A stretch of DNA of 64,000 nucleotides from Morchella semilibera (Eukaryota; Ascomycota; Pezizomycetes; Pezizales; Morchellaceae). This document shows positions 3,805 through 60,878 of the stretch, one piece after another. Every line of letters begins with the position of its first letter. The first letter of the stretch is position 1. The stretch spans positions 1,860,001 to 1,924,000 of the forward strand of contig WBVU01000012.1 in the NCBI GenBank assembly GCA_009192285.1, written 5' to 3'. Under the pieces are notes generated by a model that was given only the letters and a program-made list of their open reading frames with translations, made no database searches and was not told the origin of the DNA. The position numbers were made by a program, and so were the translations under genes.

Positions 3805-3821
3805 CGAGTGATGGATCATGA
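3805..3821 (+). repeat. CGAGTGA-N6-RTGA motif, copy 1
   Basis: The central six bases are TGGATC and the end is ATGA. It sits about 400 bp beyond the aminotransferase stop codon. Confidence 0.8.
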
Positions 3822-4523
3822 CTGACTCTCTTTTCACAGAGCAGTACATACATGTACTTAAGATTCTGCACCGGGGGGGGGGGGGATTATTTGTAGTCAG
3901 TTCGCCAAAGAAAAATAGTACCCCCTAAGGGTAGAGGATGAGGTGCTAAGCATGAAATGCCAAGATTGTGGGCATCTGTTGGGCGGATACTTACATGTGT
4001 GTACGCACTGTCTGTACTCTACATCCTACAGTACAGTATGGTGCACCAGTTGCAACAACGGCCACTGTCTGATGATATACGGGGGTACATACTTAACCAA
4101 CCTGCCTCATAAGCTGGTTCTGACCACCGGCGACCAAGGTTATCTGAAACAGCATGGGCAGCTGCAGTCTTCCTTGGTAGGTACGTAGGTGGGTACAGGT
4201 ACATGTAGTTACCAACAGTGAGTAGGGCTTAAGAGTGTGGTTATGGATTCGGGGTGCATCCGTGTGGTACATGTAGTGATGGGTTGAGTTAAGGAGTGGT
4301 CAGCTCCGGCCGGATCAGTCATTATAAGTCAAGGTAGGGACAGGACATAATGACGGGGAGTAAAGCGGTCAGATAGATGCACATTTCCTCTCACGTATTG
4401 ACAAGCGTTGAAACAGGAATAAGTGATTCCCGTCTCACTCACAGATATACATATACATACATGTAGTACCTCTCTAGCCAGGAATTCTATATACGTTTTA
4501 TATAATACATGTATGTACATACT

Positions 4524-4579
4524 ATGGAACGCATTGCCAAGCTAGCGTCTTATGGAATGCGCTGCCAAGCTAGCGTCTT
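4524..4579 (+). repeat. Tandem duplication, 2 x 28 bp
   Basis: Two adjacent 28-bp units (4524-4551 and 4552-4579) differ at only two positions. Each contains GCCAAGCTAGCGTCTT. Confidence 0.85.
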
Positions 4580-4626
4580 TGTGTAGGCCACAGCTGCCAA
4601 AGGTGTAGAAGCGACAGTTTCTGGCA

Positions 4627-4815
4627 CTGGGGGTTGGCCTAGCGGTATACAGTTTGCACTCTTTTCGATACCGCTTGGGTTCAACCCCCCAACTAACCTC
4701 TTGTAAAATCTAGGAAGCTGTCCCATAGGGGGACGTAAGTCTTGGGTTCATCCCTCCAGCTAACAAGATCTGGGAAGCTGTCCCCCTATGGGGGACGTAA
4801 GTCTTTTGTTGGCGA
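4627..4815 (+). repeat. tRNA-derived SINE-like element
   Basis: A Pol III A box (TGGCCTAGCGG, 4635-4645) matches the tRNA consensus and is followed 32 bp later by a B box (GGGTTCAACCC, 4677-4687), the normal tRNA spacing. The acceptor stem does not pair cleanly, so this is not a good functional tRNA. A second B-box-like GGGTTCATCCC at 4744-4754 starts a near copy of the 67-bp segment 4677-4743. Both units contain GGAAGCTGTCCC and GGGACGTAAGTCTT; the second forms a GTCCCCC/GGGGGAC hairpin. A T run follows at about 4820. A tRNA head with a repeated tail suggests a short interspersed element, but family membership cannot be tested here. Confidence 0.55.
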
Positions 4816-5323
4816 TTTATTTTTTTGGCTTCGTGAAATAGCCCCCGCCCCCCCTCTCTCTCACTCCCCACATAACTACATGTACCTGATCTCCCTGAGT
4901 TTGTATACTGCTGCTCGATAGTGCTTTTTAATCTTGATGCTGTTCGGGAATCGTGACCGGAAGCCAACACCCCGCTGGATCTTGGTATCACCAAAGTTGT
5001 AAGGAGTTACATATCTATAATTAAGAACCCAACAGATCGGCCAATTGGAAGGTTAGTGGCATGAGTTGTCTTCATATTCCAGGTTGTGATCCAACCTGCT
5101 ACATAATATCTCCGCATCACGCAAAGCATATATACCCTCCGTTGGTTATGAGCACATATAGTACTAGCTTGGTAATAACCAACATCCAACTCCCCTCTCG
5201 GGATCGATCTCTTACTTAGTTATAAAGCACTCCAACTCGTATGTTTGACTATAAAGGGCCCAAGGGTCCACTCACCTTGCTTCCATCCCTTCGTCTCAGT
5301 TAGGTATCCTCAACTACCTCAAA

Positions 5324-6053
5324 ATGCGCAGCCCTCTCTCTCAAAAGCTCCTCTTGCTCCTCACCTATACCCTCCTCGTCTCTGCCAGAGAAATCGACAT
5401 CCACATAGATCTCGACTCTCCTAAACCCCACCGTTATGAAACGCCCTTCCTAGGTCCACAGCAAGTCCCTGACCACAATGCAACTCTCAACGTAACCCCC
5501 CCCCTCCCCCCACCTAACCCACATACACATCTGAGATAACCCCTCTTAGTTCGACAATCTACCCCCCGGCGCCCCCGTCGACAGATACGGCTTCCTCGTC
5601 TGGACGCCCTCGATCCGCGTCGCCCAGGCCGCCTCCCTCGCCTCCTCCAAGCCCAACGCCATCCTCATAAGCCAGTACAACGCCGACGGGACCCTCACGC
5701 ACCCGGGCTTCCACATCGACAACGCCACGGCCACGTTCAAGACGCTCGACCTCCTGGGCTTCTTCATCGCACCCGCCTACGAGCCCAGGAACAAGAGGCC
5801 CACAGAGTTCAACGTCAGCGTCATGGCCACCGGGACGGACCCCGGGCGGGCGTTGAGCACCATGGTGACCCTGCGTGGGCCCAAGTGGCCGCAGCGGGTG
5901 GTGCTGAGCAACTTTAGGGCGGTGGCTACGGTCACGGTGGAGATGACGAGCCAGATTGCGCCGACGGGGGGGCCGTTTATGCCGATGTTTTTGATGGACG
6001 ATGTTAGTATATACTGGAGGAGGGTGGAGGGCGACGGCGAGGAGGAGCTCTGA
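5324..6053 (+). CDS. Secreted fungal protein of unknown function
   Basis: Two exons (5324-5491 and 5550-6053) join at phase 0 across a 58-bp intron with GTAACC, a CCTAACC branch and TTAG, giving 223 residues. A hydrophobic N-terminus (about residues 1-21, LLLLLTYTLLVSA) is a clear signal peptide. The mature part opens exon 2 with FDNLPPGAPVDRYGFLVW, a pattern typical of a common fungal secreted beta-sandwich family (F-D-[DN]-L-P...Y-x-G-[FL]-x-W). The C-terminal half is rich in alternating hydrophobic residues consistent with beta strands. Two NxT/NxS sites are visible early (NATLN, NATAT). No catalytic motif is seen and no function is assigned. Confidence 0.75.
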
Positions 6054-6771
6054 GACCTGGTGTGTTTTTTAATGAGTGGTTCGCAATTGATATGAGTAAT
6101 ATCTTTGGTTGTGTTAATGTGCATCAATTGAGTTTGAAAACCACTAGTCTAGTAGTCTCACTCCGGGGGGATCTTCAGTGACCCATGCTACCTTAATAAG
6201 GTCTAATATCATAGCCTTTGTCCTAACCTTGGCAGTATATAATTATAAGTAACTATGAATTAATAGGACCTCCGTACTAGTAGATTACGATTAACGATCG
6301 GTACCAAACAAGCAGACACAGCGTTTTTTAGTAGGCCGGTTCTCATAACTAGCTGGACTAAGTGGTGGTCATTGGCTACTGATCTAGGTCTAGCTAGAGG
6401 ATTAACGACGAGTGTGGGTGCAACGAATATGGATGAATCGTTGTATAATAGCCGTATTGGGATGCAATTCTTGATTTGGACCAGTGTTGCATAGCGCTTA
6501 TTACGTCTCGTAGCTTAATGGAAAGACACCAGTTCTAGTGAATTTGACATGGCAGTACAGCATAAATGAAAGCATAGATTATCCAAACTCCCAACCCCAC
6601 CACCCCCCCGACTGGTACCAATCATTTCCACCAGCTGTGGTGCGCTGCCAACACAAAGGTGCACAACATAAAGGTGTACCTACAAGTCCAACACAAAAAG
6701 AAAATGAGAGAAAGGCATTGCAAAAGAAAGAAAAATGAGCGAAACCTATAGCGGGGAAAAGTGGACCAAGA
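6054..6771. other. Intergenic spacer
   Basis: It lies between the ends of two convergent genes. A tRNA A-box-like string (TAGCTTAATGG) occurs near 6510 without a B box. Otherwise nothing is recognised. Confidence 0.6.
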
Positions 6772-8091
6772 TTAATTATTACCTTTCCCCAACACACGCT
6801 GCACCAGCTCCCCAAACTTCCCCCCCACGCTCCCACTCACCCTCTTCCCTATGCCCACCCTCATTCTCACCGCGCTCCTCACCGCACCCCATCTCTGCCC
6901 CTTTACCAAGCCCACCCCGACCTTGCCCTCGTACCTACCCTCAAAGATCCTCCTCAATTCACCCAATCCCGGCCTTTCTGCTGGATCCTTCCTCGTGCAT
7001 ATCTCCACCACATACCTAATTAGCCCATCAATACCCTGTAAATCCGTCTCATACGCAAATTTAATGTCCCTAAAAAGCTCCATATAGAGCTCATTCATAC
7101 TCAGGCCCTTTGCAAGAATATACAGCGTCCTCCCAAGTGCATATACATCCGCCTTTTCCAGCGCCTCACGGCTCCAAGCCCGCGAGAACCCACCACCCTT
7201 TGCTTCAGGAGGCGCAGTTGCGGCAGTCGACTCATCTTGCGAGAAGTCTATGAGGACAAGTTGCTCCTCGCCTGGGGACGAAGGGCGGACGATGATGTTG
7301 TCTGGTTTTATATCGCCATGGAAGGTTTTCTGTTCGATGTGGAGCCAGTGAACGGCGTTCACCAGTTGGCGGCCCCATCTCCAGAGTCTTTCTGGTGGTG
7401 GGCCGGACTTGAAGGTGGAGCAGAGTTCGTCGAGGTTGCCGTGGGGATAGTATTCTAAGAGGAATCCGACGACTCGACGGTCAGTTGGTGAGACTGTAAT
7501 TAGCCCATGGGGTGAAGGTATTATGTTTGGATGCGGAGGGAGTGACAGGAGGTTTCTGAGCTCTGAGAAGTTGTTCGTTGGGCCTTTGGCGACGTACTTC
7601 TTCTTTGAACCTGGATGGAGTGTGACGAGCTGGATATGGGAAGACCATGATCGTGGTGATTTTTGAGATAATGGGCAAGAATGTAGTGAAGCTAGTGGAT
7701 AAAACTTTGGTTTGGTGCATGCATTTTCCGGGATAATTTCCTCTGGTAATTTTAATTTTTGGATAATTCTGGGATCAAGTTTTTCTTCCACCACTAGCTC
7801 TCCGCTCTCGGGACGAGTGTAGAGGAACGGAGATAAGGAGAACTGTGGTGGATATACTGGGTAGTGCGCCTGCACAGTTTTCAAGATCTTCTGTAATGCG
7901 GAGGTTTGAGCTGTCTCCGGCAGATTTGGCCATGCAGATATAAGCTTTGTCTCGAAAGCATCTGGCAGGGACGGGTTGGAGTTGAGGAAAATAGTAACTG
8001 GAATATTGTGGGACAGGTTCGAGATTAGGACTCGAAGTTGGGGAGGGTTATTATGAGGAAGAAGCTGGGGGCCGAAGGTAGTTTCAGGCAT
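6772..8091 (-). CDS. Protein-kinase-fold protein with divergent catalytic motifs
   Basis: A single 439-residue exon starts with ATG at 8091. The kinase-like domain occupies about residues 145-390. Visible elements are YVAKG (possible ATP-binding Lys 169), HGDIKPDNI at 258-266 (the HRD loop with Gly for Arg, but with the catalytic Asp and Asn kept), DFS at 282-284 (DFG with Ser for Gly) and EKADVYALGRTLY near 311-323 (the subdomain IX region). The N-terminal 140 residues are unrelated to the kinase fold and unrecognised; the C-terminus is basic. Similar single-exon kinase-like proteins are common in filamentous fungi. HxD, the Asn and the metal-binding Asp are kept, so activity is possible but unproven. 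It is transcribed toward the secreted-protein gene. Confidence 0.85.
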   Translation of the reverse strand: MPETTFGPQLLPHNNPPQLRVLISNLSHNIPVTIFLNSNPSLPDAFETKLISAWPNLPETAQTSALQKILKTVQAHYPVYPPQFSLSPFLYTRPESGELVVEEKLDPRIIQKLKLPEEIIPENACTKPKFYPLASLHSCPLSQKSPRSWSSHIQLVTLHPGSKKKYVAKGPTNNFSELRNLLSLPPHPNIIPSPHGLITVSPTDRRVVGFLLEYYPHGNLDELCSTFKSGPPPERLWRWGRQLVNAVHWLHIEQKTFHGDIKPDNIIVRPSSPGEEQLVLIDFSQDESTAATAPPEAKGGGFSRAWSREALEKADVYALGRTLYILAKGLSMNELYMELFRDIKFAYETDLQGIDGLIRYVVEICTRKDPAERPGLGELRRIFEGRYEGKVGVGLVKGQRWGAVRSAVRMRVGIGKRVSGSVGGKFGELVQRVLGKGNN

Positions 8092-10531
8092 TGTTGGAAG
8101 TATATAAGTCTAGTATAAAATGATATACTTTGGGGACGTTGATTGATGTTTGTGGGGTATCTATGCCTATTAGCTTAAAACAACAGTACTGTCCATAATT
8201 TAGATCAAATATATAAACAGTCCCCCCACCTAGCAACGGTTAGCCCCAATGCATAGTATCGGGGATTGGACCGTGACCAAAGATAAGTAGGTACAGATGC
8301 CGATAGATACCTGTTTCGATATGGTAGTAGCTACATGTAGGCATATGACCAAAACTACCTGTTCCAAGTCAGAGAATTTTCTTTACCACCAGCTACTTAC
8401 ATATCATGTCTTGATTAGAATTGCACCCGGACATCTTTTCCAGAAGTGGCTTCTATGCAACAAGGGTCACTCCGGTATCAGCCCAAATACAGCCGGCCAT
8501 ATTCCAGCTCAATTGATCAAGGGTATATATAGATCATTCTCGAGTCATAGACATTTTCTAAATAGAAGCCTTAGGCCAACCATCACTTTTGGTCAAAATT
8601 ACTAGTTGCAGGGATCTTTTTGCTGGGTGGGCAAACAGCATTTCTCAAAATTGATTCTTGGCCTAAAATCTCTAATGTCTTGGTAATGATTACACTAGTA
8701 GGATGTGAGGATATGTGAGGACTGTATTGGGGCTATATCTACTGAAAAGGCCATCCCTTTTGCAATTGGCCTTGAACTCGTTCTATCGATAATGAGTTCT
8801 TCTGTCGGGTAGGTGGGGTGTTTTTCAGGTTCTCCTTCCATGGTTGATTTACTAGTGCATGACTAGCACCAAGGGACGCTTCTCTAATCTCCATTTGTAT
8901 TAGGGACTGGGTAATAAACAACATATCTACACAAGCCTACGGAAACAACACTACTTTTCAGTAATGTCGTCTCTACTTAATAGTAGTACCAAGGGCAATT
9001 TCATTTGCCTGTGAACATCCGATCTCCCACTATTCACCAAGATAGAGATGTTATATTGTGTCCTCGACATCAAACGCAGTGGAAAAAATGACGTCTTTCA
9101 GCTTACAGAGGTCAAATGAGGGGTTGTAGTTTCCAGTGGTCATAGGTTATGTATCCCACCTTGTATGATGATGATTGTGTTGCAAATACGCAACTCTCGA
9201 TTGGATCGGAGGTTTTGAGATGCTTGCGTTTGTCCGAAGTACACTACAGGGAACATTTTTTCGGATCCCCAAAGCAGTGTAGTGATACTTCTACTTCACC
9301 TCAAAAGCACAGTGGTACGCGATTTAATCCTTGTGGCCAAGATTTTACCCTAAGTTTATACGTATACCCATGTAGAACTACATGTATATGTATGATAGAC
9401 TGCCACAAGCTAGATTAATGTACTCTGTCGCGTGCCTTATTTAATTCATGCTGTATCAAACATTTGACACCGCCGGTTGTACGTTAACGCGATGTTTATG
9501 AGAATTACGTCGCAACCGTCTCTTTGGCATGTATGTAATATAATACGCTGCTGACCTTTTATTGCGTGCTACCATCAAGTGGAATCGGACTTTGATTATG
9601 ACATCTCCAGATATCTAGATGGCATGCTAATCTGTACTACGGGGGGTAGGGGTAAGTCTGTAGACAGTGTTCGTAGTACGTCTCCTACTTTTTAAGACAC
9701 AACACGGACACAATTGTTATCAGTTACACTTCGATTCACGCACGCGTACGTACTTAGGTTAGAGTGTAGAGTAATTTACCTATCAATCTGCAGGGCAATA
9801 TGCATGGGCACAATATGCAACAGCTTGTTTTCTTGACGCTGAATAAGTAGATATACGGTTGCAGTGATTGGTCGGCTCCATGCCAGAGACAAAAGATAAT
9901 CTCGCCTCATGCATTAATTGACGTCGAGTTAAGGTTATGTATGTATAACGACAGATATGGATAGGGAGTCTTAAGCGAGAGCCTACTTCTGCGACTAGAC
10001 TGACGAAATTTGAGAACCCTCTCAATCGTGCCATCATAAGTCTTGTGTTAGAGGTCCCTCAACACCATTCTTTCCCCTCCATCCCCCTCTTCCTCTCTCC
10101 ATCGTCTTCCTCTCTCCATTCATTCTAATCATCGAATATCAAACACTGTTTCAAAGCCCACAGACCAAACTATATAGGTACATCAATTCTCATTCACGGC
10201 CCCAGTCTAGTCTAATCACATTTTGTCACTCGATTAGCCCACTTGGGAGTTGAGGCTGAAACCACCCCACTCTCATGGCGCATAACCGTGGCACAGCCGG
10301 ATGGTAACGGACTAGGCGGGCCGGGGAAAGACCACATTACGGTTGACCATTCCCTGGTAAGCCAAACAGATACTTAGATTGCAATTTATAGAACCATGCA
10401 CTGATGTGATGTCAAAGCAGCTGATAATCAACACGCCTATATAAACTACCAACTCCCTTGATTCAAAGCTTTTCAGAGGAGAGGTTAGCGAATACCTCTA
10501 TGAACACAGCTCCCTCCCCTCGAATATTAAG
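8092..10531. other. Intergenic spacer
   Basis: No coding exon is supported; the short open frames here lack family resemblance or good starts. It contains TACATGTA near 8332 and 9379 and one minus-strand CGAGTGA-N6-RTGA motif. The region upstream of 8091 is the kinase-like gene's promoter, with an AT-rich stretch near 8110-8220. Confidence 0.55.
10216..10232 (-). repeat. CGAGTGA-N6-RTGA motif, copy 2
   Basis: Read on the minus strand, the central six bases are CAAAAT and the end is GTGA. It lies about 300 bp upstream of the arylesterase-like gene. Confidence 0.8.
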
Positions 10532-11951: not shown

Positions 11952-12063
11952 GCAGTTATGTTTTATGTAGAAAGTATTTATCTTGTTTTCTAAGAGTGCG
12001 ACGTGGTTTGTGAAACAATCATTGACCATATTGTATCCCTAACCCTACCTCACTAGTGCCGTA

Positions 12064-12591: not shown

Positions 12592-12608
12592 CGAGTGAGA
12601 ATATATGA
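12592..12608 (+). repeat. CGAGTGA-N6-RTGA motif, copy 3
   Basis: The central six bases are GAATAT and the end is ATGA. It lies about 180 bp beyond the helicase fragment. Confidence 0.8.
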
Positions 12609-13601: not shown

Positions 13602-13618
13602 CGAGTGAGAATCTATGA
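13602..13618 (+). repeat. CGAGTGA-N6-RTGA motif, copy 4
   Basis: The central six bases are GAATCT and the end is ATGA. It directly abuts the stop codon of the minus-strand frame 13619-14050. Confidence 0.8.
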
Positions 13619-14050: not shown

Positions 14051-14074
14051 CGGCCCCAGTTAAGCAATGGGGGA

Positions 14075-17984: not shown

Positions 17985-18001
17985 CGAGTGACATATCATG
18001 A
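17985..18001 (+). repeat. CGAGTGA-N6-RTGA motif, copy 5
   Basis: The central six bases are CATATC and the end is ATGA. It lies 91 bp beyond the stop codon of the minus-strand ligase gene. Confidence 0.8.
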
Positions 18002-27272: not shown

Positions 27273-29302
27273 TTTGAATTTTAGTTTACGGGTACAAAAT
27301 CATCGCATAAAGTAAAAACTATGGCGTAAAAAAAACCCCAGTGCCCCCACAAAAAATAAATGACAGCCGGACCCGAAGTATAGAAACTATGGTATGCTCC
27401 CAACCGCACCGCACTCTTACGAGTTCCTCTTTCAAGGCAGACGCCGCGGACCCAGCCCCCCCAAAGAAATTTAAAAGAAAAAAAGAAAAAAGCAAACGCA
27501 AAAAACAAAAAGAAAAACGTAACCAAAAAACCCCATAATGGGAAAGTAGCACGCAGAGCGGCCGGTAGGTAGACACTCCCAAGGCGAAAAACCCTCAAAA
27601 GCGGGGTAATTGCTTGGCAAGCAGGTGGTGTGGGTGCTGGATTTACTGGTTTACACAGTCTCCCCAGCTGACTATGGGCGACTTTCTGATGAGGACACGC
27701 TGCCCAGGACAATTTGGTAGTGTGGGTGGGAGCCGGTTGCAATCCAAGAGGAAGGACTCCACGAAATGGCGAACTTTTAAGCAGAAGAGCAGAAAAGCCC
27801 GCTGGAGTAAGGGTGGGTTATAAAGAACCCGGAGAAGAGTAGAGTAAAGGGCATCCCTAGGAGTAGGAGACATCTCTTGTGGGTGTGTACAGAGGAGAGC
27901 TGTTCTTCGGAATGTGAGAAGATTTGACTATCTTAAAGACAATGAAGCCTAAGAAAAGTCGGGGTTGTGGGGTGATCCTCCCTATTCTCAAGTCTTGGCG
28001 GTGTTGAGAACGGGATTGAAGAAAGGAAGAAGGATGACTTAGGTGGTTTTTTATACACCTACTTAGTATATCATCAAGCCAGCCGTAACTCTTGATCATT
28101 GTTAGGCGGCTATGAACACCCAACCCTTAAGGGACATATTGCATATATCATGTTTTGACGGACTAAAAATCCCATCCAAACGTCATAACTAGAATAAGGC
28201 GTTCAAAGTCTTTTTATAATTTAGCCACGTACTATAGCTTAGGTCTAGTCGAACACATTGATATCCTTTATTTGCTCTTTCTATAATACTTACTATGTAC
28301 AGACTGTTGTCATAGCAACAGAACTGTTAGTACCTTCACAGCATATGATCCGAAGACCGAGTGATATACCATGAATTGAATTTACCTACGCCTAAAATTG
28401 CAAATTCGTACTTAAGCTGCAAGGCGGGGAAAAGTCACAGCTGCGCCTATAAGATTTGGGATAAGCTAAGCCCTAGGCGCTTATTTTGCTAGGGTCATCT
28501 GATGTCTGACTAGGCGGATAACTAGACATGTTTGACTTCGGCACTTTAATTTTATAACTATCACAGGGGGGTTTGTTTTGTTAAACGAATAAGAAAATTA
28601 GCGTAGGCGCCGCAAGACTAGTAAGCGCATACATACATATAGCTCACTCCAACTCTCACTCAGACGATTGGTGGTTGGTGGCTTGAGGAAAGATGATAAG
28701 CCTTAAACACATTGCACCATGGATACTTTCCTTTCGAAGTTAGATATCCGGATCTCAATCAGTATCTGGTTAGGAAACAGGCTAATAAGCGCCAGTGGCC
28801 GCGAACACATGAGTCTCTCCCATGTATATGTTGGCGGCACAGCGTTTAGTGCAACATTTTTGGGCGGTTAGTTGCCTCAAATAACTTGGCGCCGCCGCAT
28901 TATCCGAGGAACCTGGTGAGAGCGGAGTTCTCTAGCTGAAAATAGCACCAATCCAGATTGGCTGGTTCCAAATGATCCATATGCATGGACTCTCTAGAGC
29001 TCCTAGATCTCTGAATATATGTGCTTGGGAGGCTGCAGCTAATCAGTATATATTGGCAGTGTATTCTCGCAATCTACCCGGGTTATTCGATCACGACATC
29101 CACAGCCAAACAATCTCAATCTAGTCTACTACAGCTATAGTTCCCTACTCTCGTCAATCGATTTATTATCTACTCGACGGTCCTGATCCATACATATATA
29201 TTTACAAAATATCATATATCCCGCCCCGAAAATCCGACAGCCCCAGCAAATATATAAAGAATTCTTTTAAGACAGAGAATCTAACCAATTTATATAAAAA
29301 AA
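26802..29302. other. Intergenic spacer
   Basis: Contains a 27-T run at 27240-27266 and one CGAGTGA-N6-RTGA motif. Open frames near 27281-27742 are low-complexity and not supported as genes. Confidence 0.55.
28358..28374 (+). repeat. CGAGTGA-N6-RTGA motif, copy 6
   Basis: The central six bases are TATACC and the end is ATGA. Confidence 0.8.
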
Positions 29303-30319: not shown

Positions 30320-32557
30320 GCTGTGAATTATGGGTAACGAATCCGCGAAGCTAGAGATTCGGGAAATACAAACTATTTGACGGAATATATTGATGGGGGC
30401 GATTGCTATTGGGATTATGTAGAATCATTTGATGATTTGAGGTTGGATGAAGAGTTACAATATCTCCTGGGATTTTTTTGTTTTGTTTATTCTTCGAAAG
30501 AAGTGGGCGGTTGAGAGTTTTTGGTTAGCTAGTTAGTTTATAAGAAATATATCTATAAAAGCATACTCTGGCATGGTGAGACAATTACCTCATATATAGG
30601 CCTGTGATATTTCAAGCGGATTAGCCCCCCTTTTGTTTATTACGCAAAGCCAGAACCCCTAAATCTAATATAGATACAAAGATTCAGGATTCCATGAGGG
30701 AAAGGGAGCCACTTGAAGATATAGTTGAGGTAAGTCTCAGGACGAATCATTATGATTAGTCTCTATCGGAATCGAGAAAATAAACAATAATCCGGTTAAT
30801 TCAATGAGATTACTTGTTTCTTTTCTTTTACTTCCTGTATCTAGGGTGGTATCCTGGCATTCATGAACCTGTGACCCGGTATCGGCATTCGGCCTGCTGG
30901 ACAGCGTCCGCTGGGTTGTAGCTAGGGTTGTGACTGCAAGTGCCAAGAAGCCAGACCTTTGGCTTGCAACTATTAATTCCATGAGGGAAATATATGTATT
31001 GCGGTCCTTCGGAACTCTTGTGGGATAATCTACCCATTTCGTAACTACCGCCTTGAAACCCGATATCCCATTGAAAACACATGCAGCTGCTCTGGAGGGA
31101 AGTCCGAAAACCTGGAGTAATCCATGACTCGTACCTTGAGGGGCCACTGTTGCACACCATACCAAGTGTTGGACCTGGCACGTGCATCCTCTATGGCATG
31201 CAATTGCGGTTCCTTTCACAAACGCCCGAGTAAACGTGTATGCAGGCCCATATGCAATTAGTTGTAAGGTTACCCGCCATACCGAAGTCCATTGAATTGC
31301 ACAGGTTAAGATAAAGGTATGCGGGAAAGCAAAAAGTAGATTGGTGCATGCGCCTACAAGGCGCTAACGGTAGATAGTGCTTCGTGGCTTCAGCAAAATG
31401 AATGCTAGCCGACGGCGCAGTTAGCTATTGCCGGTAACGCACAGTACTTACTAAGCGGCCAGAGACGACGGTCCATGGACGGCGGAATCAGAAACAAGCC
31501 TGTTAAAAGGTGATAGGTTGGTATGGTACCTATACGCTAGGGTTTGGTGATGGGGTATTTGTGGGCTCGTGTATGCAACAGAGCAGAACCTATATACTCA
31601 CGGTGGCAGATTTCTAGTCAAGGAGCTTCATATATATAACAACAGAAATCTCTCCCCCTACGATCTGTATGGTCTGGGATTAGTACGAGAGTAGGACAAA
31701 ACAAATTAAAGGGAGGATCTAGACGCAACAAGGTTCTATGTAAACTAAACCTGAGCTAGATGGGATCTGCTCGACTTCCAACGTCTATCAAATCAACAGG
31801 GGAATTGCCTCAGAATGTCCTATACTCAACAAAGGGTACACCGCCATGCTTTTGGCTGGAGATTACTATGGAATACAAACCACTCACCGCTATGTTGTCC
31901 AGATAGCCTTCGAGTCTATGGTTCTAGTCCATGACATGGGCTAAGACGGATCATTCTAATCAATGCCGTATGTGTTCACTAATACGGTGGTGGTGGGATT
32001 ATGGGTCGTACTCTAATCAAATCTTTGCCTCGGTATTTATCAAAGCGCACGGATGCGAGTGATATTCTATGATTGCAGTCATGTTCGCGACATAGAGGAT
32101 TTTTTTACTCTGGAGGCTGAGGAAACGCATTTTTTGATGATTTGAGTAGATACAGAAACCCTGGCAAACGAACCCCTGCCACGTCAGGAAAGGCCAAAAT
32201 TTAGCGGCCCCTCGCCTCAGCTCGCGTTGAAAACACCCCGGTTTATTAATGAAGTCCTGGTAAAAAGGGACGCTCCCACAAAAGGGTGTTTTCTCATTAA
32301 GGCATTTTTGGTTAATGATGATTCGCCATAACCACATTTAACGTTGATATAATGCTTTTTTTCGTTACACGTGGGAGGCTGTTTAGGGCTGAGCTGACAT
32401 GCATGGAACAACTCAGATCTCCCGGCCCCTGAGTTTATGGAGCTGAGAAAAGGATCGCAACAACCGCGAGCGCCGGTTATTTTTTGCCCACGCTTTTCGA
32501 TATATCTATGAGCATACGGGTACAGATCAGGGCCCGTTATACTTAAGTCTCTCTTCA
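30320..32557. other. Intergenic spacer
   Basis: A 160-codon minus-strand open frame (30737-31219) starts at GTG and shows no family resemblance, so it is not called. One CGAGTGA-N6-RTGA motif is present. Otherwise nothing is recognised. Confidence 0.5.
32056..32072 (+). repeat. CGAGTGA-N6-RTGA motif, copy 7
   Basis: The central six bases are TATTCT and the end is ATGA. It lies about 490 bp upstream of the gene at 32558. Confidence 0.8.
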
Positions 32558-37862: not shown

Positions 37863-38364
37863 GTTTAACCAGCCCGTTTAAGAGCTCGACACGGGACTTC
37901 CTTATTTTCTTCATTTTCCATAATTTTATATTCTTAGGGTTTCACGGAAAGAAAAAAAAAAGTGGTTAAATGTACTTTTCACGGTTTCGATTTTATAGCA
38001 TACTTATCGGAGGGTAACGGGACGGGAATGGATTATTAAGGCCTAGGGAGTTAACGGGTTTTTTGATTTTTGTTCTCTCATCTCTTGTCTTGCATCGCTT
38101 TGCTATACGGCTTTTCTTTGGTATAGGGGTTGTGAAATCTTTCTCTTACTTTCCTTTTCTACGACGTCTGTTTATTCTCCTTTGGGTTACGTAGGGAGCT
38201 GGCTGGCTGGCTAGCTGGCCGGCCTGGATGCTTGTACCATAGTCAACTTGGGATGAGTATACAACAGAATCTTTGAATGACAACTATCACTGTCTCCGAC
38301 CGCTTGTCAAGGCATTTTGGGCGCTTAGTGAGTGATCGGTGATGACGATAATAATTTTCTGGTG

Positions 38365-38381
38365 CGAGTGAGAACCTGTGA
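38365..38381 (+). repeat. CGAGTGA-N6-RTGA motif, copy 8
   Basis: The central six bases are GAACCT and the end is GTGA. It lies about 500 bp beyond the AT-hook gene. Confidence 0.8.
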
Positions 38382-40567: not shown

Positions 40568-40584
40568 TCACGCAATATCACTCG
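40568..40584 (-). repeat. CGAGTGA-N6-RTGA motif, copy 9
   Basis: Read on the minus strand, the central six bases are TATTGC and the end is GTGA. Confidence 0.8.
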
Positions 40585-44497: not shown

Positions 44498-44514
44498 TCA
44501 CGCACTATCACTCG
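44498..44514 (-). repeat. CGAGTGA-N6-RTGA motif, copy 10
   Basis: Read on the minus strand, the central six bases are TAGTGC and the end is GTGA. It lies about 650 bp beyond the deacetylase gene. Confidence 0.8.
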
Positions 44515-45907: not shown

Positions 45908-45924
45908 CGAGTGATATTCCATGA
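45908..45924 (+). repeat. CGAGTGA-N6-RTGA motif, copy 11
   Basis: The central six bases are TATTCC and the end is ATGA. Confidence 0.8.
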
Positions 45925-49897: not shown

Positions 49898-49914
49898 CGA
49901 GTGATGTGATGTGA
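49898..49914 (+). repeat. CGAGTGA-N6-RTGA motif, copy 12
   Basis: The central six bases are TGTGAT and the end is GTGA. Confidence 0.8.
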
Positions 49915-52900: not shown

Positions 52901-52976
52901 CCATCAATCCATTGTTGGTTGGTCATCGTAACTGCTCGGTTTGTTGCACCGTTTCCTCTGTTATGCCTCAAAGCGT

Positions 52977-53003
52977 TATTATTATTATTATTATTATTAT
53001 TAT
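52977..53003 (+). repeat. (ATT)n microsatellite
   Basis: A trinucleotide array of about nine units, ending in ATC and lying 195 bp before the start codon of the cell-surface gene. Confidence 0.9.
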
Positions 53004-53198
53004 CATTCCGTTTCAGCCGCTAACCAGCCTCCTCATATTCTAGCAGACTATCTCACCTTTGTTGCACGGTTTCCACGCTGCAACCATTCTACGAACCCTT
53101 TCCTCTCTTCACGATTAACGACCTTATCTGATTTTTACGATTCAATTCTCCCCCCCCCACCACACCATCTCCACCCCCCCCCCCATATATCGCCCATC

Positions 53199-54530: not shown

Positions 54531-55486
54531 TGGGGAGAGGAGGAGGTGATATTGATAAATGATGTATGGGATATGAAATGATTCAATTCGACTTGTATGA
54601 TTTTTGATGATTTCTGCCTTTTTTTTTTTTTTTAAACCCCCCCCCCCCTTTCTTATAGGTGTCGAAAAATGATTTGAAGAGAATTTGTTGTGTTTTCTTG
54701 TTCCATTCCAATCTGTGATATCTTTTGTTGCTTTTTTCTTGTAGCTTCTCTTAGCATGCATGTCTTTGAGAAAATTAGGGTTTCGCGGGGAGGACGTAAT
54801 GAATGATGATGTTGAGACGTAGTTGTTTAGTATAGTGGGCGGGGGTTCGAGGGGGTCAATTGGGAGTAGTAGCAGCGAGTGTCGGGAGGAAGTGTTGGGG
54901 GGTATTGGGTTCCTTTTGTACGTGGAGTTTGTTTTGCATTCCTTATGTCTTTTGGAATTGTGTGTGAGTGTGTGTTTTCTGTGATGGAATGCGGGCAAAA
55001 GAATTTAGTGGTGGAATGCTGTTGCAAAGAAGTAGCGAGTAAGGGAATTGATGTCATTGTCATGTAACTAGCTTCTTCTTTTTCTTCCTTCTTCCTTCGT
55101 TTCTCTTTTCTTTTCTCTGCTCTATGCTCAATACCTTACCTTTAACCCCTAGATCACCAATAAAGAAGGAAGAAGTACATAGCTTTAACTGCAGTGTTCA
55201 AGCCCCAAGCTGTCCCGTGCGTACCGCTGCCCCACACCACGCCCTATGTAGCTACGTCACATCACAAGGCTTGGGCGGTAACCAGCCACCAGAGAAACAT
55301 AACACTGTGTTACACTACCAGCTCACGAGGGCATGGTGGCGGAGTGTGCATGCCTCGCGGAAGTGCAAGGCGTAAGAACATTCCAGGGGCCGCAATTGGC
55401 TTAGAGTCGGTGTGGGGGTGCATGTGGTGTGTGGTGTGGTGTGGTGCGGTACGAGATGTGGGGGGGGGGGGGGGTGTGAAGGGCGG

Positions 55487-55503
55487 TCATGGAACGTCAC
55501 TCG
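55487..55503 (-). repeat. CGAGTGA-N6-RTGA motif, copy 13
   Basis: Read on the minus strand, the central six bases are CGTTCC and the end is ATGA. Confidence 0.8.
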
Positions 55504-56169
55504 TTGTGTCACGGGTGGGAGGGCGGGACTGCGTTGCTTACATGTACTTAGACGGTACCCATCACCCCCCGCCTAGGCTGGGGCCAACAGGGCCCATACA
55601 GACAACCCGTAGGTGCAACGCCCCGGGTGGTTGTCACAGCTTAGTACTTTGCATCGAAGTGGTGCAGAGGTATCTGGGGTGAGGCGGGAGGCTGGATGGT
55701 TGTTGGTGGTCAAGAGGAGAGGGGTTTAGGTCCTCTCTCCTCAGGTATTCTCTAATTATGGCTGGCCTCTTACATAATACCTAACCCTTAGTACTTGTGG
55801 TGATGATTACCACAGTATTTCTAGAGCTCGCAGAGGGAGTCTCCGTCTATTAAGCAGAACGACAGTACCTACCCAGCTCGAGAGGGGGAGAGTGTGGGTT
55901 GGTCTAGTGCCACCGGGCAGGAGCGCTCACTACAGGGCCTTTCTTGCTGTGTCTGTGGCATACCAACGCCGGCTCTCCAGCCTGCTAGCTCCCGCCGTGC
56001 CGCCGTGGCTGGTAACCCCGGCGACGAACGGCTGGAGGATAACAATAACAACCCCATGCACTAACGCGGCGACCACATTCACCAGCGCTGGACTGGCACT
56101 ACGCACGAGGGCCTGGATGGCATACACGTACATGAAGTACACATACGGGTCTTGGCGCCCTGTTGGGGT

Positions 56170-56186
56170 CGAGTGATGTTTCGTGA
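56170..56186 (+). repeat. CGAGTGA-N6-RTGA motif, copy 14
   Basis: The central six bases are TGTTTC and the end is GTGA. It lies about 190 bp beyond the permease stop codon. Confidence 0.8.
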
Positions 56187-56371
56187 CTGGCTCTGTTGCT
56201 GCAATCGGTGGGGGAAGACACAATGGTGTTATTGTGGCCGCTGGCTATCTACAGACATGTGGATTGACTGATTACTTCTAAATACTACCCGTCATTAATT
56301 AAATCCAGTACCTACCTAAATACACACAATTACGGCCATATATGGTACATTATCATGGTCGCCCTCCACCC

Positions 56372-57928
56372 TCAAACCTTGGCTACCCTCCACCACCTGC
56401 TCCCCCTACCGCCCCCCGCCCCCTCCAGCTTCTGGTCCTGCCTCGTCAGCGCCCACACCCGCAGCGCATACATGCACCCCGCCGCGGCGAGATACATGCA
56501 CCCCGAGAAGATCTGCGGGTACAGATACGCATTGCGCTCTCCAGGGCGGCGGAGATAGAGCGCGATTGGCTCCGAGACTGGGGAGTGTCAGCGGGAGTGT
56601 CAGTGCTTGATAAGGGGGAGTTACATGTTGTGGGCAGGACCACCGAGAGCCATACCAGCGACAGCGCGCTCGGGAGCTCCTTTATCCCCACCACTTCGAC
56701 CGTGACCGGGGATACCGTCTACACCTCGTGTCAGCACCGCGGGAGGGGGGGATATAAAACACATGCACCCACCGTCCAGAACGTGCCGCACACCGCGCCA
56801 TTGACCAAGCTGAACAGCACAGCGACCCCAAAGCTCCTGGCCCAAATCCAGATACAGAAGCAGCTCAGCGCGCTCGCCAGCGTCATGAGCCCGCTCACAT
56901 TGATCCTCCCATAGCGATCGCTCGCGACGCCGACCAACGGCCTCCCAAACGCCATCCCCAGGTTCAGCATCGCCGTCAGCACGCCCCCCTGCGCCCCCGT
57001 CATCCCCAGCCCCGCCGCATAGTCCGGCAGCGAAAACAAAATCACCACATACCCCAGCATCGAGAAGACGCCCCAGGCCAGCACCAACCGGAACCCGCCG
57101 CCCTGCCGGCGCACAAGGCGCCAGTCCAGCGCGCGCTGGCTCGGCCGCACGGCCCGGTTGCGGTCGCGGATCAACACCGTGCACGCCGCGTTCGCGGTAA
57201 ACACGCATGCGGCGACGATGCGGAAGGACCACTGCGCGCCGAGCGTGTTGATGGCGCGCTGGCTTGCGAGCGAGAAGATGAGGCCGCCGATGCCGCTGCC
57301 GGCCGCGGTGATGCCGTTGGCCAGGCTGCGCTTCGCGCCGAACCACTGCGAGATTGTGCCGACGGAGGAGGTGAAGAGGAGGCCCAGGCCCCAGCCGAAG
57401 AGGACGCCCTGCGTCAGGAAGAGGTGCCAGATGGTGGTGGAGAAGGAGGCGAGGACCAGTGCGCTGGTCTGCAGCAGGATGCCGAGGGACATGCCGGTGC
57501 GGGTGGAGGTGTGGCGGAGGAGCAGCGTCGCGAGCGGCGCGATGAGCATGGATTGGGAGATGGAGAGGCCGCCGATGAAGGCGTATTGGAGCGGGGTGGC
57601 GGAGGGGTATTTGTCTGTGGAGAGGTAGTGGGCGAGGTAGACGCCGTAGGACTGGTAGGTCAATTCAGCTGTATCCTAAATGTACATATATATATTATAG
57701 ACAAAAACATACGCTGTTCACACCCCAGGTCATGGCATTGACCACGAAGCAGCACCCCACAACGACCCATCCGTATCCCCCGTCCGGCGGTACATCGACA
57801 TCGACATCGACAGTCTCCTGCAGCTCTTCATCCTGTCTGGCAATACCATCTGTGGCTGAGATGGCCTCCTCTTTCTCCATATCGAGTTGCTGCTGGGGGT
57901 GAGTCAAGTGTGTGGAGGAGGGCGTCAA
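56372..57928 (-). CDS. MFS transporter, monocarboxylate-permease type
   Basis: Four exons (57928-57713, 57675-56773, 56718-56625, 56577-56372) give 472 residues, or 456 if translation starts at the ATG at 57880. The N-terminus has an acidic run followed by PPDGGYGWVVV, the hallmark of fungal monocarboxylate/riboflavin-type permeases. Family continuity supports each splice: GVNS-DTAELTYQSYGVYLAHY, GTFWT-TVSPVTVEVVGIKELPSA, and PTT-FSEPIALYLR. About 12 hydrophobic spans are expected; AFGRPLVGVASDRYGR is the central-loop MFS motif. It probably moves a carboxylate or related small metabolite across the plasma membrane. The first intron is only 37 bp, at the low end for fungi. Confidence 0.88.
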
Positions 57929-58271
57929 TTGCGAGACTCGACTCTCAGCTGGCTAGTCCTCTCGATACCCCCAAAGCTGTGGAAGCGGGGGGGGGAGCTG
58001 TCGACAGATATATATATGTACATATATACCCCCCTCCTCCATATCTACATGTAGAGTCACAGCCCTCCAACCCCGGTAGAGAGGAAAGAAAGGAAAGAAA
58101 GGAAAAAAAACCCTAGCTACTAAGCCCGGTAAAGCAAACAATTCCCTGTCCAAAAAGATGCTTAAAAGCTGCATGCATATTTGTCCTCTTAGCCGAGCAG
58201 CCGGCGGTCGGGGGTGGGTCTGCTGACAAATGCGTGCAGTAGCGGAACTGGCAGGTGGAGGGAGGGGGGGC

Positions 58272-58288
58272 CGAGTGATTTCTTGTGA
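58272..58288 (+). repeat. CGAGTGA-N6-RTGA motif, copy 15
   Basis: The central six bases are TTTCTT and the end is GTGA. It lies about 345 bp upstream of the permease start. Confidence 0.8.
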
Positions 58289-58671
58289 GGGGATCTTCTG
58301 GTAATTGTGTTGTGGGGATGTGGGGGTTGGTGCTTTGGTGGGTGGGATGTGGGGTTGGTATGTTGGGTGTGCTTTATACTAATATGTACTTTACTCTACT
58401 ACATGCACTGACTGGTAGGAGGAGTACATGTAGCTGTGTATGGCGCTCTGGCTACATGCCTCACTATCTATCACGCATGTGGCTTCTTGACATGACCAGT
58501 GTCCTCGATCAGCCCATCACACGTCAAGACCACCCAGGAGAGGAAGAAGTTGATTGTTGTGACTTTTATAACTAACTTTTGTGTAAGTCTTTTCTAACAA
58601 CAAGTTCTAACAATACAATGTGTATTAATACGAAGGAAAAGGGGAGAGAAGAAAGCGTCGATATATGGAAC

Positions 58672-58688
58672 CGAGTGATATCTCATGA
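58672..58688 (+). repeat. CGAGTGA-N6-RTGA motif, copy 16
   Basis: The central six bases are TATCTC and the end is ATGA. It lies about 100 bp beyond the CCC1-like stop codon. Confidence 0.8.
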
Positions 58689-58788
58689 TTGACACCACCA
58701 GATATATGCTACAGTTACAGATTAATGGAACAAAACAGCACAGAAGAGAGAAGAAGATATACCTCGCCCAAGAACATTTTCCACCAAT

Positions 58789-59724
58789 CTACGACATCCC
58801 CCCTAGAGCCCTGACGATACCCATCGCCGCCGCGGCCGCCACTCCCCCGACCACCACCATCTCCACCCCCCCCCTCACAACCCTCGCCCACTCCCACCCA
58901 GCCCTCTCCTCCTCCTCCTCCTCCTCCTCCTCCCCCGCCACAACGGCTGCCGCCGCCCCCCCACCACCAACCAACACCGTCTTCCCGCCCCCAAACACAA
59001 ACAGACACACCACCATGACCACCACGCTCCACCGCAGCCCCACCAGCACTTCCCCCCTATCCACAAACACATACGGCACCAACGGCACAAACCCGCCAAA
59101 GAAGTACCCCGCCGCGATAGTCACAGCACTCGACACCGGCGTCCTCCCGCCCTCCTCCGCCTCCGCCTCCACCCCATGCAAGAAACGCATCAAGAACCCG
59201 ACCAGGGCCTCCTCCTCCCCCCGCGCAACAAGACACTCAACAACGGGCTCGACGGCCTCCTCGGGAAGAGCATACGGCGCGAACACGCGCCTGACGAGCG
59301 CCGCGACCCGGTCCGCCGGGGCAGTGTGTACGAGCGCCGCCGTCGCGCGGCGGGTATTTTCGCGGAACTGGGCCTCGCCGCGGCCAGCAAGCCACCCGCC
59401 GAGACCCATGGAGATGCTGCCGGCGATGAGTTCGGCCAGGCCGCCATAGAGCACCACGCGCGTGTCGTTGAAGGCGGAGAGGCCGGCCGTGAGGGCGAAG
59501 GGGACGGTCAGGCCGTCTGAGAGGCCGATAGTGAGGTCGGAGAGGACGCGGGGGTCCAGGTATGGCGACGTTTTGGCGGCGGTGGGGGTTTCGCTGCTGG
59601 TGGTGCCGTAGGTTTTGAGGGCGGGGGTGTTGGTGTTGGTGTTTGTGTTGGTTGGGAGGAGGGGGGGAGTGGCGTTAGAGGGTTTTGAGGGGAAGAGGAG
59701 GTGCTTGAGGAAGACGAGAACCAT
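58789..59724 (-). CDS. CCC1/VIT1-family vacuolar iron/manganese transporter
   Basis: A single exon of 311 residues with ATG at 59724. The family signature is in the first span: DLTIGLSDGLTVPFALTAGL, followed by GGLAELIAGSISMGLGGWLA, the two conserved VIT1 segments carrying the membrane Asp/Met residues used for metal transport. A cytosolic metal-binding loop rich in Glu (EEEALVGFLMRFLHGVEAEAEE) follows, then SSAVTIAAGYFFGGFVPLVPY and a C-terminal pair of spans. A GC-rich low-complexity insertion (GGGGAAAAVV, then a Glu run) lies between the last spans. Yeast Ccc1 loads iron and manganese into the vacuole, and this protein should do the same. Confidence 0.92.
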   Translation of the reverse strand: MVLVFLKHLLFPSKPSNATPPLLPTNTNTNTNTPALKTYGTTSSETPTAAKTSPYLDPRVLSDLTIGLSDGLTVPFALTAGLSAFNDTRVVLYGGLAELIAGSISMGLGGWLAGRGEAQFRENTRRATAALVHTAPADRVAALVRRVFAPYALPEEAVEPVVECLVARGEEEALVGFLMRFLHGVEAEAEEGGRTPVSSAVTIAAGYFFGGFVPLVPYVFVDRGEVLVGLRWSVVVMVVCLFVFGGGKTVLVGGGGAAAAVVAGEEEEEEEEERAGWEWARVVRGGVEMVVVGGVAAAAAMGIVRALGGMS

Positions 59725-60207
59725 TGCTGCTATAGCTGTGGTTCAATTGGTTCTGTAGAGGTAGTATGTATGTGAGTATGAGTGAGTGAGGGTATCGTGA
59801 CTTTATATTGACCATATAGCAATTGAAGCAGAAGGAATTGAGGATATTATAGAGTGTCCTAGTATCTTCTTCTTCTTCTAAGAATGTATGTACCTTCTTC
59901 ACAGTTTCCACCCCTTGCCTGGTGCCGATAGCTTCCCAGAGCGGTAAAGAGACCTTTCCGGTTCTTTATAGAAGAAAAAGAAAAAAGAACCCCTACGTCA
60001 GTGCCAAGGGCAGAGGCTCTGGTTTGGCCAATCAGGATTGAGGTATTTGTAATTGGTGGGGAAGATATCACATCACAGTGGAGAGATGATGTAGAGAAGT
60101 AGTGTCGTTGTATTGATTCCCTATGATGTGATTGAATAATTGTGGTATACGTAGCTACATCTACTCACAGCTACAAACACCAACAGCCCTAAGAACACAC
60201 TCCCTCA
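59725..60207. other. Intergenic spacer
   Basis: Short promoter region of the CCC1-like gene. No other feature is recognised. Confidence 0.55.
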
Positions 60208-60507
60208 CTAAGAACACCCCTCCCGCTTCGCATACTCCTCCTCGATCCTCTCCTCGTACAGTCTGTCTGCCTCTTCCCTGATCCTCTCTTGGTACAATCT
60301 CTCTGCCTCCTCCTCCCTCTCCTCGTCCGTCATCTCCCGCCTCCCCTTCGCGTGGTCCCCCCCACCACTGTTAGAGGAGCGGTGGGGCTCGCTGCCGACC
60401 TGGTGGTTACTACCGCTGGTGAGGGGCGTGGAGGTCACGTTTGCAGGCGAGGACTGGGCCTCGGTGGGGGAGGGCTTCTCGTTGGTGGTGAAGAGGGGGA
60501 TGGGCAT
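60208..60507 (-). CDS. Small acidic helical protein, unrecognised
   Basis: 99 residues from the ATG at 60507. The frame stays open further upstream but only with a TTG start and through a tandem repeat. The N-terminal half is Ser/Thr/Pro/Asn-rich. The C-terminal half is a highly charged helix (MTDEEREEEAERLYQER) in which [EI]EEADRLYEERI-type units repeat with a period of about 11-13 residues, fitting a coiled coil. No catalytic motif is present and the function is unknown. Confidence 0.5.
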   Translation of the reverse strand: MPIPLFTTNEKPSPTEAQSSPANVTSTPLTSGSNHQVGSEPHRSSNSGGGDHAKGRREMTDEEREEEAERLYQERIREEADRLYEERIEEEYAKREGCS

Positions 60508-60538
60508 GTTTGTGGTGTAGTAGTTATAATGCGGTGTG

Positions 60539-60695
60539 ATGTGATCTGGAGAGTTGTAGATATTCAGTCCTGGGTAGTGATGCAATGTGAGTGTAGATAT
60601 TCACTCCTGGGCAGTGATGCGATGTGATCTAGAGAGTTGTGAATATTCAGAGTGATGTGAGAGTTTTAGATATTCAGTCCTGGGCAGTGATAGAG
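60539..60695 (+). repeat. Imperfect tandem repeat, about four units
   Basis: Units of roughly 35-50 bp share AGATATTCAGTCCTGGGCAG followed by TGATG and a GTGAT/GAGAGTT segment, with small insertions and deletions between copies. Confidence 0.75.
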
Positions 60696-60861
60696 AGTCT
60701 TGAGCCTAGGTTTGATGCTTGTTTGCACGGTGATGTTTATAATTGCGGGCCAGTGGCAACTGCATACGTCATGTGTGGCGCCCCCTCCCCTCCCCCACAA
60801 GGGTGTTCAGCTACGCCACACCCACTACCTGATATTGTCGTGGAGTGCCCAGTGCGGTGGG

Positions 60862-60878
60862 CGAGTGATATTTTGTGA
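60862..60878 (+). repeat. CGAGTGA-N6-RTGA motif, copy 17
   Basis: The central six bases are TATTTT and the end is GTGA. Confidence 0.8.

What the first reader, a model, noticed from the sequence alone, without database searches (positions are those of the whole stretch)
3805..60878. A bipartite 17-mer, CGAGTGA-N6-RTGA, scattered 17 times through non-coding DNA
Copies start at 3805, 10216(-), 12592, 13602, 17985, 28358, 32056, 38365, 40568(-), 44498(-), 45908, 49898, 55487(-), 56170, 58272, 58672 and 60862, plus a one-mismatch copy at 63707. Of the 21 CGAGTGA heptamers I found on both strands, 17 have RTGA at the same spacing (chance about 1 in 128 each). Chance alone predicts well under one full match in 64 kb. 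The central six bases and flanks are not conserved, and no copy lies in a modelled coding exon. The two half-sites (GTGA and RTGA) repeat directly 10 bp apart, one helical turn, as expected for a protein docking on one DNA face. Several copies sit 90-650 bp beyond a stop codon. This looks like a genome-wide binding, boundary, origin or methylation-type site rather than a transposon.
Basis: seen in the sequence. Interest (0 to 1): 0.88.

Follow-up and report, generated by a model that had tools for sequence, protein, structure and literature searches.

The report
Morel genome's recurring intergenic protein-binding site
A short DNA word with two fixed halves occurs about 8,500 times, mostly between genes, in a morel mushroom and bears the marks of a docking site for an as yet unidentified protein, perhaps one that separates neighbouring genes.

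Summary
All 17 copies are where stated. The source genome, which matches Morchella crassipes in size and scaffold lengths, holds 8,470 exact copies against 44 for the reversed pattern, about 0.7 per published gene; some scaffolds are duplicated. The spacer is exact: 41 copies at N6, 0-2 at each other spacing in 274 kb. Copies with one mismatch are fewer and those with two are at background, so there is no tail of decayed copies. Flanks are unrelated apart from one old duplication. Copies within 30 bp of each other are over-represented in every orientation (tandem 160 against about 20) and favour set distances: tandem 18-19 bp start to start, convergent gap 9, divergent gap 2. Copies are mostly outside exons, show no strand bias at gene 3' ends, lie closer to 3' ends than random non-coding positions (48 sites, p 0.003) and are sparse between divergent genes. 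Best reading: a constrained, cooperatively bound site for an abundant general or boundary factor. The protein and the boundary role are inferred, not shown.

The parts
3805..3821 (+). 17-mer CGAGTGATGGATCATGA
   Evidence: 404 bp beyond the predicted stop of a class IV aminotransferase gene
10216..10232 (-). 17-mer CGAGTGACAAAATGTGA
12592..12608 (+). 17-mer CGAGTGAGAATATATGA
   Evidence: between convergent predicted genes
13602..13618 (+). 17-mer CGAGTGAGAATCTATGA
   Evidence: abuts a small predicted ORF of doubtful reality
17985..18001 (+). 17-mer CGAGTGACATATCATGA
   Evidence: 90 bp beyond the predicted stop of a CoA-ligase-type gene
28358..28374 (+). 17-mer CGAGTGATATACCATGA
32056..32072 (+). 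17-mer CGAGTGATATTCTATGA
38329..38345 (+). variant TGAGTGATCGGTGATGA, 36 bp from the next copy (tandem pair)
   Evidence: T at position 1 is over-represented genome-wide too
38365..38381 (+). 17-mer CGAGTGAGAACCTGTGA
   Evidence: 502 bp beyond the predicted stop of the preceding gene
40568..40584 (-). 17-mer CGAGTGATATTGCGTGA
44498..44514 (-). 17-mer CGAGTGATAGTGCGTGA
   Evidence: 655 bp beyond the predicted stop of a polysaccharide deacetylase gene
45908..45924 (+). 17-mer CGAGTGATATTCCATGA
49898..49914 (+). 17-mer CGAGTGATGTGATGTGA
55487..55503 (-). 17-mer CGAGTGACGTTCCATGA
   Evidence: between convergent predicted genes
56170..56186 (+). 17-mer CGAGTGATGTTTCGTGA
   Evidence: about 190 bp beyond the likely stop of an MFS gene, though a later model put it in an exon
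58272..58288 (+). 17-mer CGAGTGATTTCTTGTGA
58672..58688 (+). 17-mer CGAGTGATATCTCATGA
   Evidence: 100 bp beyond the predicted stop of a VIT1-family gene
60862..60878 (+). 17-mer CGAGTGATATTTTGTGA
63707..63723 (+). variant TGAGTGAGATTTTATGA

Best explanation
The word is a DNA-binding site for one abundant sequence-specific protein, or a fixed dimer, of the morel. Two recognition modules contact GAGTGA and RTGA in successive major grooves, 10 bp (about one helical turn) apart on one face of the DNA. Neighbouring molecules contact each other, so sites occur in pairs and short arrays at preferred distances. The protein sits between genes, preferentially downstream of gene ends and in either orientation, and most likely acts as a general regulatory or boundary factor: a bound barrier that stops read-through polymerase or separates the chromatin of adjacent genes. 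Shown here: the motif, its copy number, exact spacing, constraint pattern, mostly intergenic placement without strand bias at 3' ends, and the pair geometry. Inferred: that a protein binds, that it is one protein, that sites are under selection, and that the outcome is a boundary or terminator.
For: 8,470 copies against 44 control. Spacing exactly N6, 41 against 0-2 at each other spacing from 0 to 15 in 274 kb. In 264 kb the counts for 0/1/2 mismatches are 41/26/123 against 1/5/121 for the reversed control; estimated information about 20.9 bits against 13.1-13.7 needed for the frequency. The centre varies (89 distinct words of 100 listed) but is biased. Flanks are unrelated apart from one old duplication. 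Close pairs at gaps 0-30 are over-represented in each orientation: tandem 160 against 19.6, convergent 65 against 9.8, divergent 40 against 9.8 under uniform scatter, with peaks at tandem gaps 1-2 (29 of 91 tallied), convergent gap 9 (10 of 48) and divergent gap 2 (5 of 34). At tandem gaps 31-60 the number is 48 against 19.0. Tandem partners have identical N6 in only 4 of 91. 48 sites lie nearer predicted gene 3' ends than random non-coding positions (median 854 against 1,569 bp, p 0.0027) but not nearer 5' ends (p 0.70). Density is 0.48, 0.42 and 0.165 per kb in convergent, tandem and divergent intergenics (p 0.013-0.032). At 3' ends 16 sites are on the gene's strand and 16 opposite.
Against: No protein is identified and no binding, expression or chromatin data were available. 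Relatives' genomes could not be searched, so selection is inferred from one genome. The 3' bias rests on 48 sites, 29 of them from one 114-kb stretch, and on my own gene models, which miss and over-extend genes and count some retrotransposon frames as genes; distance to the nearest end of either kind gives only p 0.073. Many copies are more than 1 kb from any predicted gene end, which a simple terminator would not predict. At 5' ends there is a strand skew (11 opposite, 5 same). No A+T-rich trough surrounds 55 sites, unlike many yeast factor sites (recalled). A review offers the hypothesis that heterochromatin may serve as loop anchors and make CTCF-like boundaries unnecessary in some fungi (passage).
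Confidence: 0.62

Rival explanations
1. A general promoter or enhancer transcription-factor site, like Reb1/Abf1/Rap1 sites in yeast, opening nucleosomes near transcription starts. (Not exclusive of the best explanation: it too is a protein site, with another role.)
For: About 0.7 copy per gene, tight motif, mostly intergenic placement, clustering.
Against: No bias towards predicted 5' ends (p 0.70); fewer between divergent genes, where two promoters face each other; no A+T-rich dip. Only start codons, not transcription starts, could be placed.
Confidence: 0.2
2. A chromosome-structure site, such as a replication origin element, cohesin or condensin loading site, or loop anchor. (Not exclusive of the best explanation.)
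For: Genome-wide, mostly intergenic, denser in tandem and convergent than in divergent intergenics; pairs in all orientations.
Against: Among the first 100 + strand copies on C1 the spacing is irregular (median 8.4 kb, mean 13.3 kb, SD 18.9 kb). About one copy per 6.7 kb on both strands seems dense for origins or loop anchors (recalled scales).
Confidence: 0.15
3. Remains or ends of a transposon, or a short element spread by copying.
For: High copy number; information content above what the frequency requires, which copying could produce; one pair of flanks does share an old duplication.
Against: No shared flanks otherwise; the centre is diverse; no tail of decayed copies; no exact + strand copy in a 164-kb stretch of C1 of which one 1-kb sample looks like Gypsy reverse transcriptase by my reading; two 10-kb samples with Pfam-supported reverse transcriptase have no site.
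Confidence: 0.04
4. An RNA-level element (3' UTR or terminator signal read in the transcript).
For: Preference for gene 3' ends.
Against: 16 same-strand and 16 opposite-strand at 3' ends; 8 of 19 same-strand in tandem intergenics.
Confidence: 0.03
5. A recognition word of a DNA-modifying enzyme (bipartite, as in type I methylation).
For: Bipartite asymmetric word with an exact spacer.
Against: A modified word need not be over-represented about 190-fold, be mostly outside exons or pair at preferred distances. Modification itself was not tested; the word 'methylation' does not occur in the main text of the genome paper, so no data either way were seen.
Confidence: 0.04

Closest known systems
General regulatory factor sites of yeasts (Reb1, Abf1, Rap1)
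   Same: Tight sites for one abundant protein between genes; roadblock termination of RNA polymerase II at a Reb1 site is described in passages of PMC6314782 (citing Colin et al. 2014).
   Different: Sequence and spacing differ from the Reb1 and Abf1 consensus as I recall them. Here the bias is to gene 3' and not 5' ends, and the copy number is far larger than I recall for yeast. PF04684 (ABF1) gave no match, but that search had no positive control.
CTCF sites of animals
   Same: A long asymmetric word in many copies across the genome, with a proposed boundary role (comparison recalled).
   Different: CTCF is stated to be restricted to higher metazoans (passages of PMC10246852); sequence unrelated (recalled); orientation-dependent looping not tested here.
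CENP-B box / pogo-type HTH sites
   Same: A 17-bp bipartite site contacted by two DNA-binding modules (recalled).
   Different: Sequence differs (recalled); here copies are dispersed, not satellite-borne; no candidate protein of this type was searched for.

Membership tests
Sequence-specific protein-binding site | Fixed bases, exact spacer, limited degeneracy, unrelated flanks | tested here: met
Sequence-specific protein-binding site | A protein that binds it | not testable with these tools
   no binding data; three C2H2 loci were read and judged by eye with a recalled recognition code, without a convincing match
Yeast-type general regulatory factor (Reb1/Abf1/Rap1) site | Placement near transcription starts | tested here: inconclusive
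   no bias to predicted 5' ends of coding regions (p 0.70); transcription starts are unknown
Yeast-type general regulatory factor (Reb1/Abf1/Rap1) site | Cognate ABF1-family protein present | tested here: inconclusive
   PF04684 no match at E<=1, and the control genomes did not ring either
CTCF-type insulator | CTCF orthologue present | not tested
   literature passages only
CTCF-type insulator | Boundary or loop-anchor activity in contact maps | not testable with these tools
   no Hi-C data at hand
Transposon end or dispersed repeat | Homologous flanks or decaying copies | tested here: not met
   the exception is one old segmental duplication
Roadblock terminator | Location downstream of gene ends, in either orientation | tested here: met
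   on 48 sites and own gene models; many sites are nevertheless over 1 kb from a gene end
Roadblock terminator | Polymerase pausing and release at the site | not testable with these tools
   needs nascent-transcript data
RNA element | Strand bias with the transcript | tested here: not met
   16 same and 16 opposite at 3' ends
DNA-modification site | Modified base at the word | not testable with these tools
   no modification data at hand

The most novel reading that the evidence does not exclude
Morels have their own genome-wide boundary system: a single protein reads a 19-bp bipartite word in most gene neighbourhoods, stacks on adjacent sites in a few preferred geometries, and separates neighbouring transcription units, filling in a fungus the role that CTCF-like proteins fill in animals. 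A second over-represented intergenic word, TACATGTA, may belong to the same vocabulary.
Probability: 0.27. Interest if true: 0.9.

Novelty: new variant of a known kind. Interest (0 to 1): 0.78.

Why it matters
A review says that the nature of boundary or insulator regions in fungi remains to be examined in detail and that CTCF is restricted to higher metazoans, while also suggesting that heterochromatin anchors may make such elements unnecessary in some fungi (passages of PMC10246852). A word this sharp, at about 0.7 exact copies per gene (gene number) in an economically valued mushroom, makes the question testable: one oligonucleotide pull-down could name the protein, and the natural pairs at preferred spacing are a built-in test of cooperativity. 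The estimated information exceeds what the frequency requires by about 7 bits, which calls for an explanation such as cooperative or two-fold use of each site.

Tried and rejected
Transposon, RNA-element and chance readings were tested and found unlikely (see rivals). Deamination was considered for position 1: TGAGTGA occurs 9 times in 274 kb but the opposite-strand product CAAGTGA 0 times, so tolerance of T fits better. Gene finding: the first training rounds were too G+C-biased and were replaced; the final median intron, 64 bp, is close to the published 63. Candidate protein: zf-C2H2 was searched twice (150 of 201 first-look candidates scored, 148 matches at E<=1); three multi-finger loci were read (one looks like TFIIIA by my judgement) and none fits convincingly; the other loci were not read, and Myb, homeodomain and CENP-B-type families were not searched. 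ABF1 family: no match, no positive control. The 5.8S search meant to help name the species gave one sub-threshold fragment. Telomere-repeat search: 3 matches. tRNA and Rfam scans of the window: nothing. Co-enriched 7-mers within 100 bp: best p 6e-5 among 5,421 tested, not significant after correction; GAGTGA itself is denser near sites (20 against 8.7), as expected from pairs. Literature: the heptamer, 3,706 papers hold the string, 40 listed; the octamer, 706 papers, 5 listed; combinations with motif, fungus, Pezizomycotina or Morchella terms; 2, 0, 0 and 1 papers; 588 papers, 12 listed. No listed title describes this motif; most papers were not seen, and figure logos cannot be searched, so its absence from print is not established. 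Not possible: conservation in other morels, since the tools hold no other fungal genomes that I found.
Full report
What was checked. With up to one mismatch there are 21 matches against 1.7 expected. Of 21 CGAGTGA heptamers, 17 carry RTGA at N6. In the whole source genome there are 8,470 exact copies against 44 for the pattern read backwards, and 13,697 against 1,513 with up to one mismatch. Distinct copies are somewhat fewer, because some scaffolds repeat others: a C9 sample matches C10 at 100% over 9.8 kb, and C12/C13 and C21/C22 list the same pairs.

The organism. The genome is 56,756,124 bp in 23 contigs; C1 is 7,341,407 bp and C18 is 544,727 bp. The Morchella crassipes paper gives 23 scaffolds, longest 7,341,407 and shortest 544,727 bp, and 11,565 genes (PMC7014384; abstract, passages and sections 6 and 7 seen); another paper quotes 56.76 Mb for it (passages of PMC13208314). 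So there are about 0.73 exact copies per published gene. A Clr5-domain protein in the window fits a filamentous ascomycete (that Clr5 is typical of these is recalled).

The motif. In a 274-kb sample the spacer is exactly six: 41 copies, against 0-2 at each other spacing from 0 to 15. In the first 100 copies listed for C1, 89 words are distinct; position 8 is T76/C15/G9/A0, position 9 mostly A, positions 12-13 mostly pyrimidine, position 14 A65/G35. A at position 8 does occur, rarely, in other listings (L026:388; C17:74990-75043). Over 55 sites, positions 18-19 favour T/C, and nothing else between -24 and +45 outside the word passed the threshold. One search, and the placement counts, used a pattern that allows T at position 1 and leaves out A at position 8. 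T at position 1 occurs 890 times against 125 control. The refined word is YGAGTGA[Tcg]ANNYYRTGAYY. The halves read GTGAT and RTGAY, a direct repeat 10 bp apart.

Constraint. In 264 kb the numbers with 0, 1 and 2 mismatches at the 11 fixed positions are 41, 26 and 123, against 1, 5 and 121 for the reversed control. The excess stops at one mismatch. Old copies of a dispersed element should decay through two and three mismatches; a recent burst of copying should leave uniform centres and shared flanks. Neither is seen. A rough estimate of information is 20.9 bits, against 13.1-13.7 bits needed to account for the frequency; it is conditioned on matches with at most one mismatch. Comparing 57 sites with 200-bp flanks all against all gave 32 hits at E 0.01, of which I saw 20 and all longer than 35 bp. 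The seven long ones are three overlapping neighbour pairs, the two sites of L001 against one of L002, and two alignments of one pair over 40-43 bp that match at several offsets, probably simple sequence. The short hits that I saw mostly cover the motif itself. L001 and L002 are parts of an old segmental duplication: one has two sites 26 bp apart, the other one site across a 26-bp length change, and the site of L002 differs from the second site of L001 only at the tolerated first base and at two centre bases. This is a single case.

Pairs. Genome-wide, two copies in tandem with a gap of 0-30 bp match 160 times on the two strands (19.6 expected for uniform scatter), convergent pairs 65 times (9.8) and divergent pairs 40 times (9.8); tandem pairs with gaps of 31-60 bp match 48 times (19.0), including outer members of arrays. 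All these counts include duplicated scaffolds, and the uniform expectation ignores that copies concentrate in non-coding DNA, so part of each excess has those causes; the 31-60 figure is the better baseline. Tallies on the listed, non-duplicate rows: tandem 29 of 91 at gaps 1-2, convergent 10 of 48 at gap 9, divergent 5 of 34 at gap 2. Tandem partners share on average about 2.5 of 6 centre bases, against about 2.2 expected from column frequencies (my arithmetic), and are identical in 4 of 91, so most are not recent duplications.

Placement. I built gene models with a small dynamic-programming gene finder trained on long open frames; its median intron of 64 bp is close to the published 63, but it misses and over-extends genes and takes some retrotransposon frames for genes. 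Of 61 sites including the T variant (two of them listed twice because L002 and L003 overlap; L001-L008 were fetched because they hold copies), 50 could be classed: nearest gene end 3' in 32 (16 same strand, 16 opposite), 5' in 16 (5 same, 11 opposite), 2 in predicted exons; 11 had no gene model in reach. Of the two in exons, one has A at position 8 and is probably a chance match, and one (56170) is probably past the stop of its gene. Against random non-coding positions, 48 sites are closer to 3' ends (median 854 against 1,569 bp, p 0.0027), not closer to 5' ends (1,628 against 1,517 bp, p 0.70), and not clearly closer to the nearest end of either kind (p 0.073). Of the 48, 29 come from one 114-kb stretch and 19 from seven other loci. 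Site density is 0.48 per kb in convergent, 0.42 in tandem and 0.165 in divergent intergenics (8, 19 and 6 sites), p 0.013-0.032 for three gene-size cut-offs. These tests share data and are not corrected for multiple looks.

Transposon-bearing DNA. On C1 no exact + strand copy is listed for 164 kb (622,704-786,552; about 12 expected); one T variant lies inside (706,675), and the minus strand there was not listed. Of five 1-kb samples from it, two were examined for open frames: one reads as Gypsy-type reverse transcriptase and one contains an integrase-like stretch, both by my reading without a family search. Two 10-kb samples with Pfam-supported reverse transcriptase, L011 and L023, have no sites. 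Five other samples without sites (L012, L013, L022, L024, L025) were not shown to carry transposons; one or two frames each of L012, L022 and L024 were scanned, L013 and L025 were not. So absence is not specific to transposons.

Mechanism. The simplest account is one abundant protein or dimer with two recognition modules on one DNA face, binding cooperatively. Position between genes, 3' bias and lack of strand bias at 3' ends fit a barrier or boundary role like the roadblock termination described for Reb1 (passages of PMC6314782). That step is inference. A review states that CTCF is restricted to higher metazoans and that fungal boundary regions remain to be examined, but also that heterochromatin might make them unnecessary in some fungi (passages of PMC10246852). 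No listed paper title describes this motif; the listings were capped, so this is weak evidence of absence.

Limits. One genome, no relatives, no functional data, a modest sample for placement, and no candidate protein.

Noticed in passing
window 1289, 3849, 4200, 4268, 4458, 4506, 4877, 8332, 9379, 16454, 22725, 25263, 25440, 25472, 33508, 34188, 40253, 40736, 44215, 44356, 45778, 45811, 55539, 58046, 58425, 61483, 61637: A second over-represented intergenic word, the palindrome TACATGTA: 97 copies in 264 kb, 0 in predicted exons, against 7-41 for each of 12 one-mismatch variants and 1-14 for 11 permuted palindromes (both-strand counts of palindromes halved); extended to AnnTACATGTAnnT; in the 114-kb stretch its 44 copies are nearer the 17-mer than random non-coding positions (median 648 against 1,012 bp, p 0.013). 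Surroundings are often TAC/GTA-rich, so a simple-sequence origin is not excluded.
   Followed up: partly
L016/L017 (C9/C10); C12/C13; C21/C22; C17:558703 and C1:4006093: Scaffolds or parts of them repeat one another (C9 and C10 sample 100% identical over 9.8 kb), so the assembly holds duplicated sequence of unknown cause.
   Followed up: partly
L032, about 1501-1672 (C19:2699587-2699758): A lone 5.8S-rRNA-like fragment, below the Rfam cut-off (39.5 against 42 bits). Its surroundings were not scanned for other rDNA.
   Followed up: no
L033 (C7:243500-245300): A C2H2 protein with six finger-like matches in one open frame; a convergent pair of the motif lies about 2 kb away. Probably coincidence given the site density.
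   Followed up: no
L001:1347-1688 and L002:2111-2421: An old segmental duplication in which one copy has two sites and the other a single site across a 26-bp length change.
   Followed up: partly
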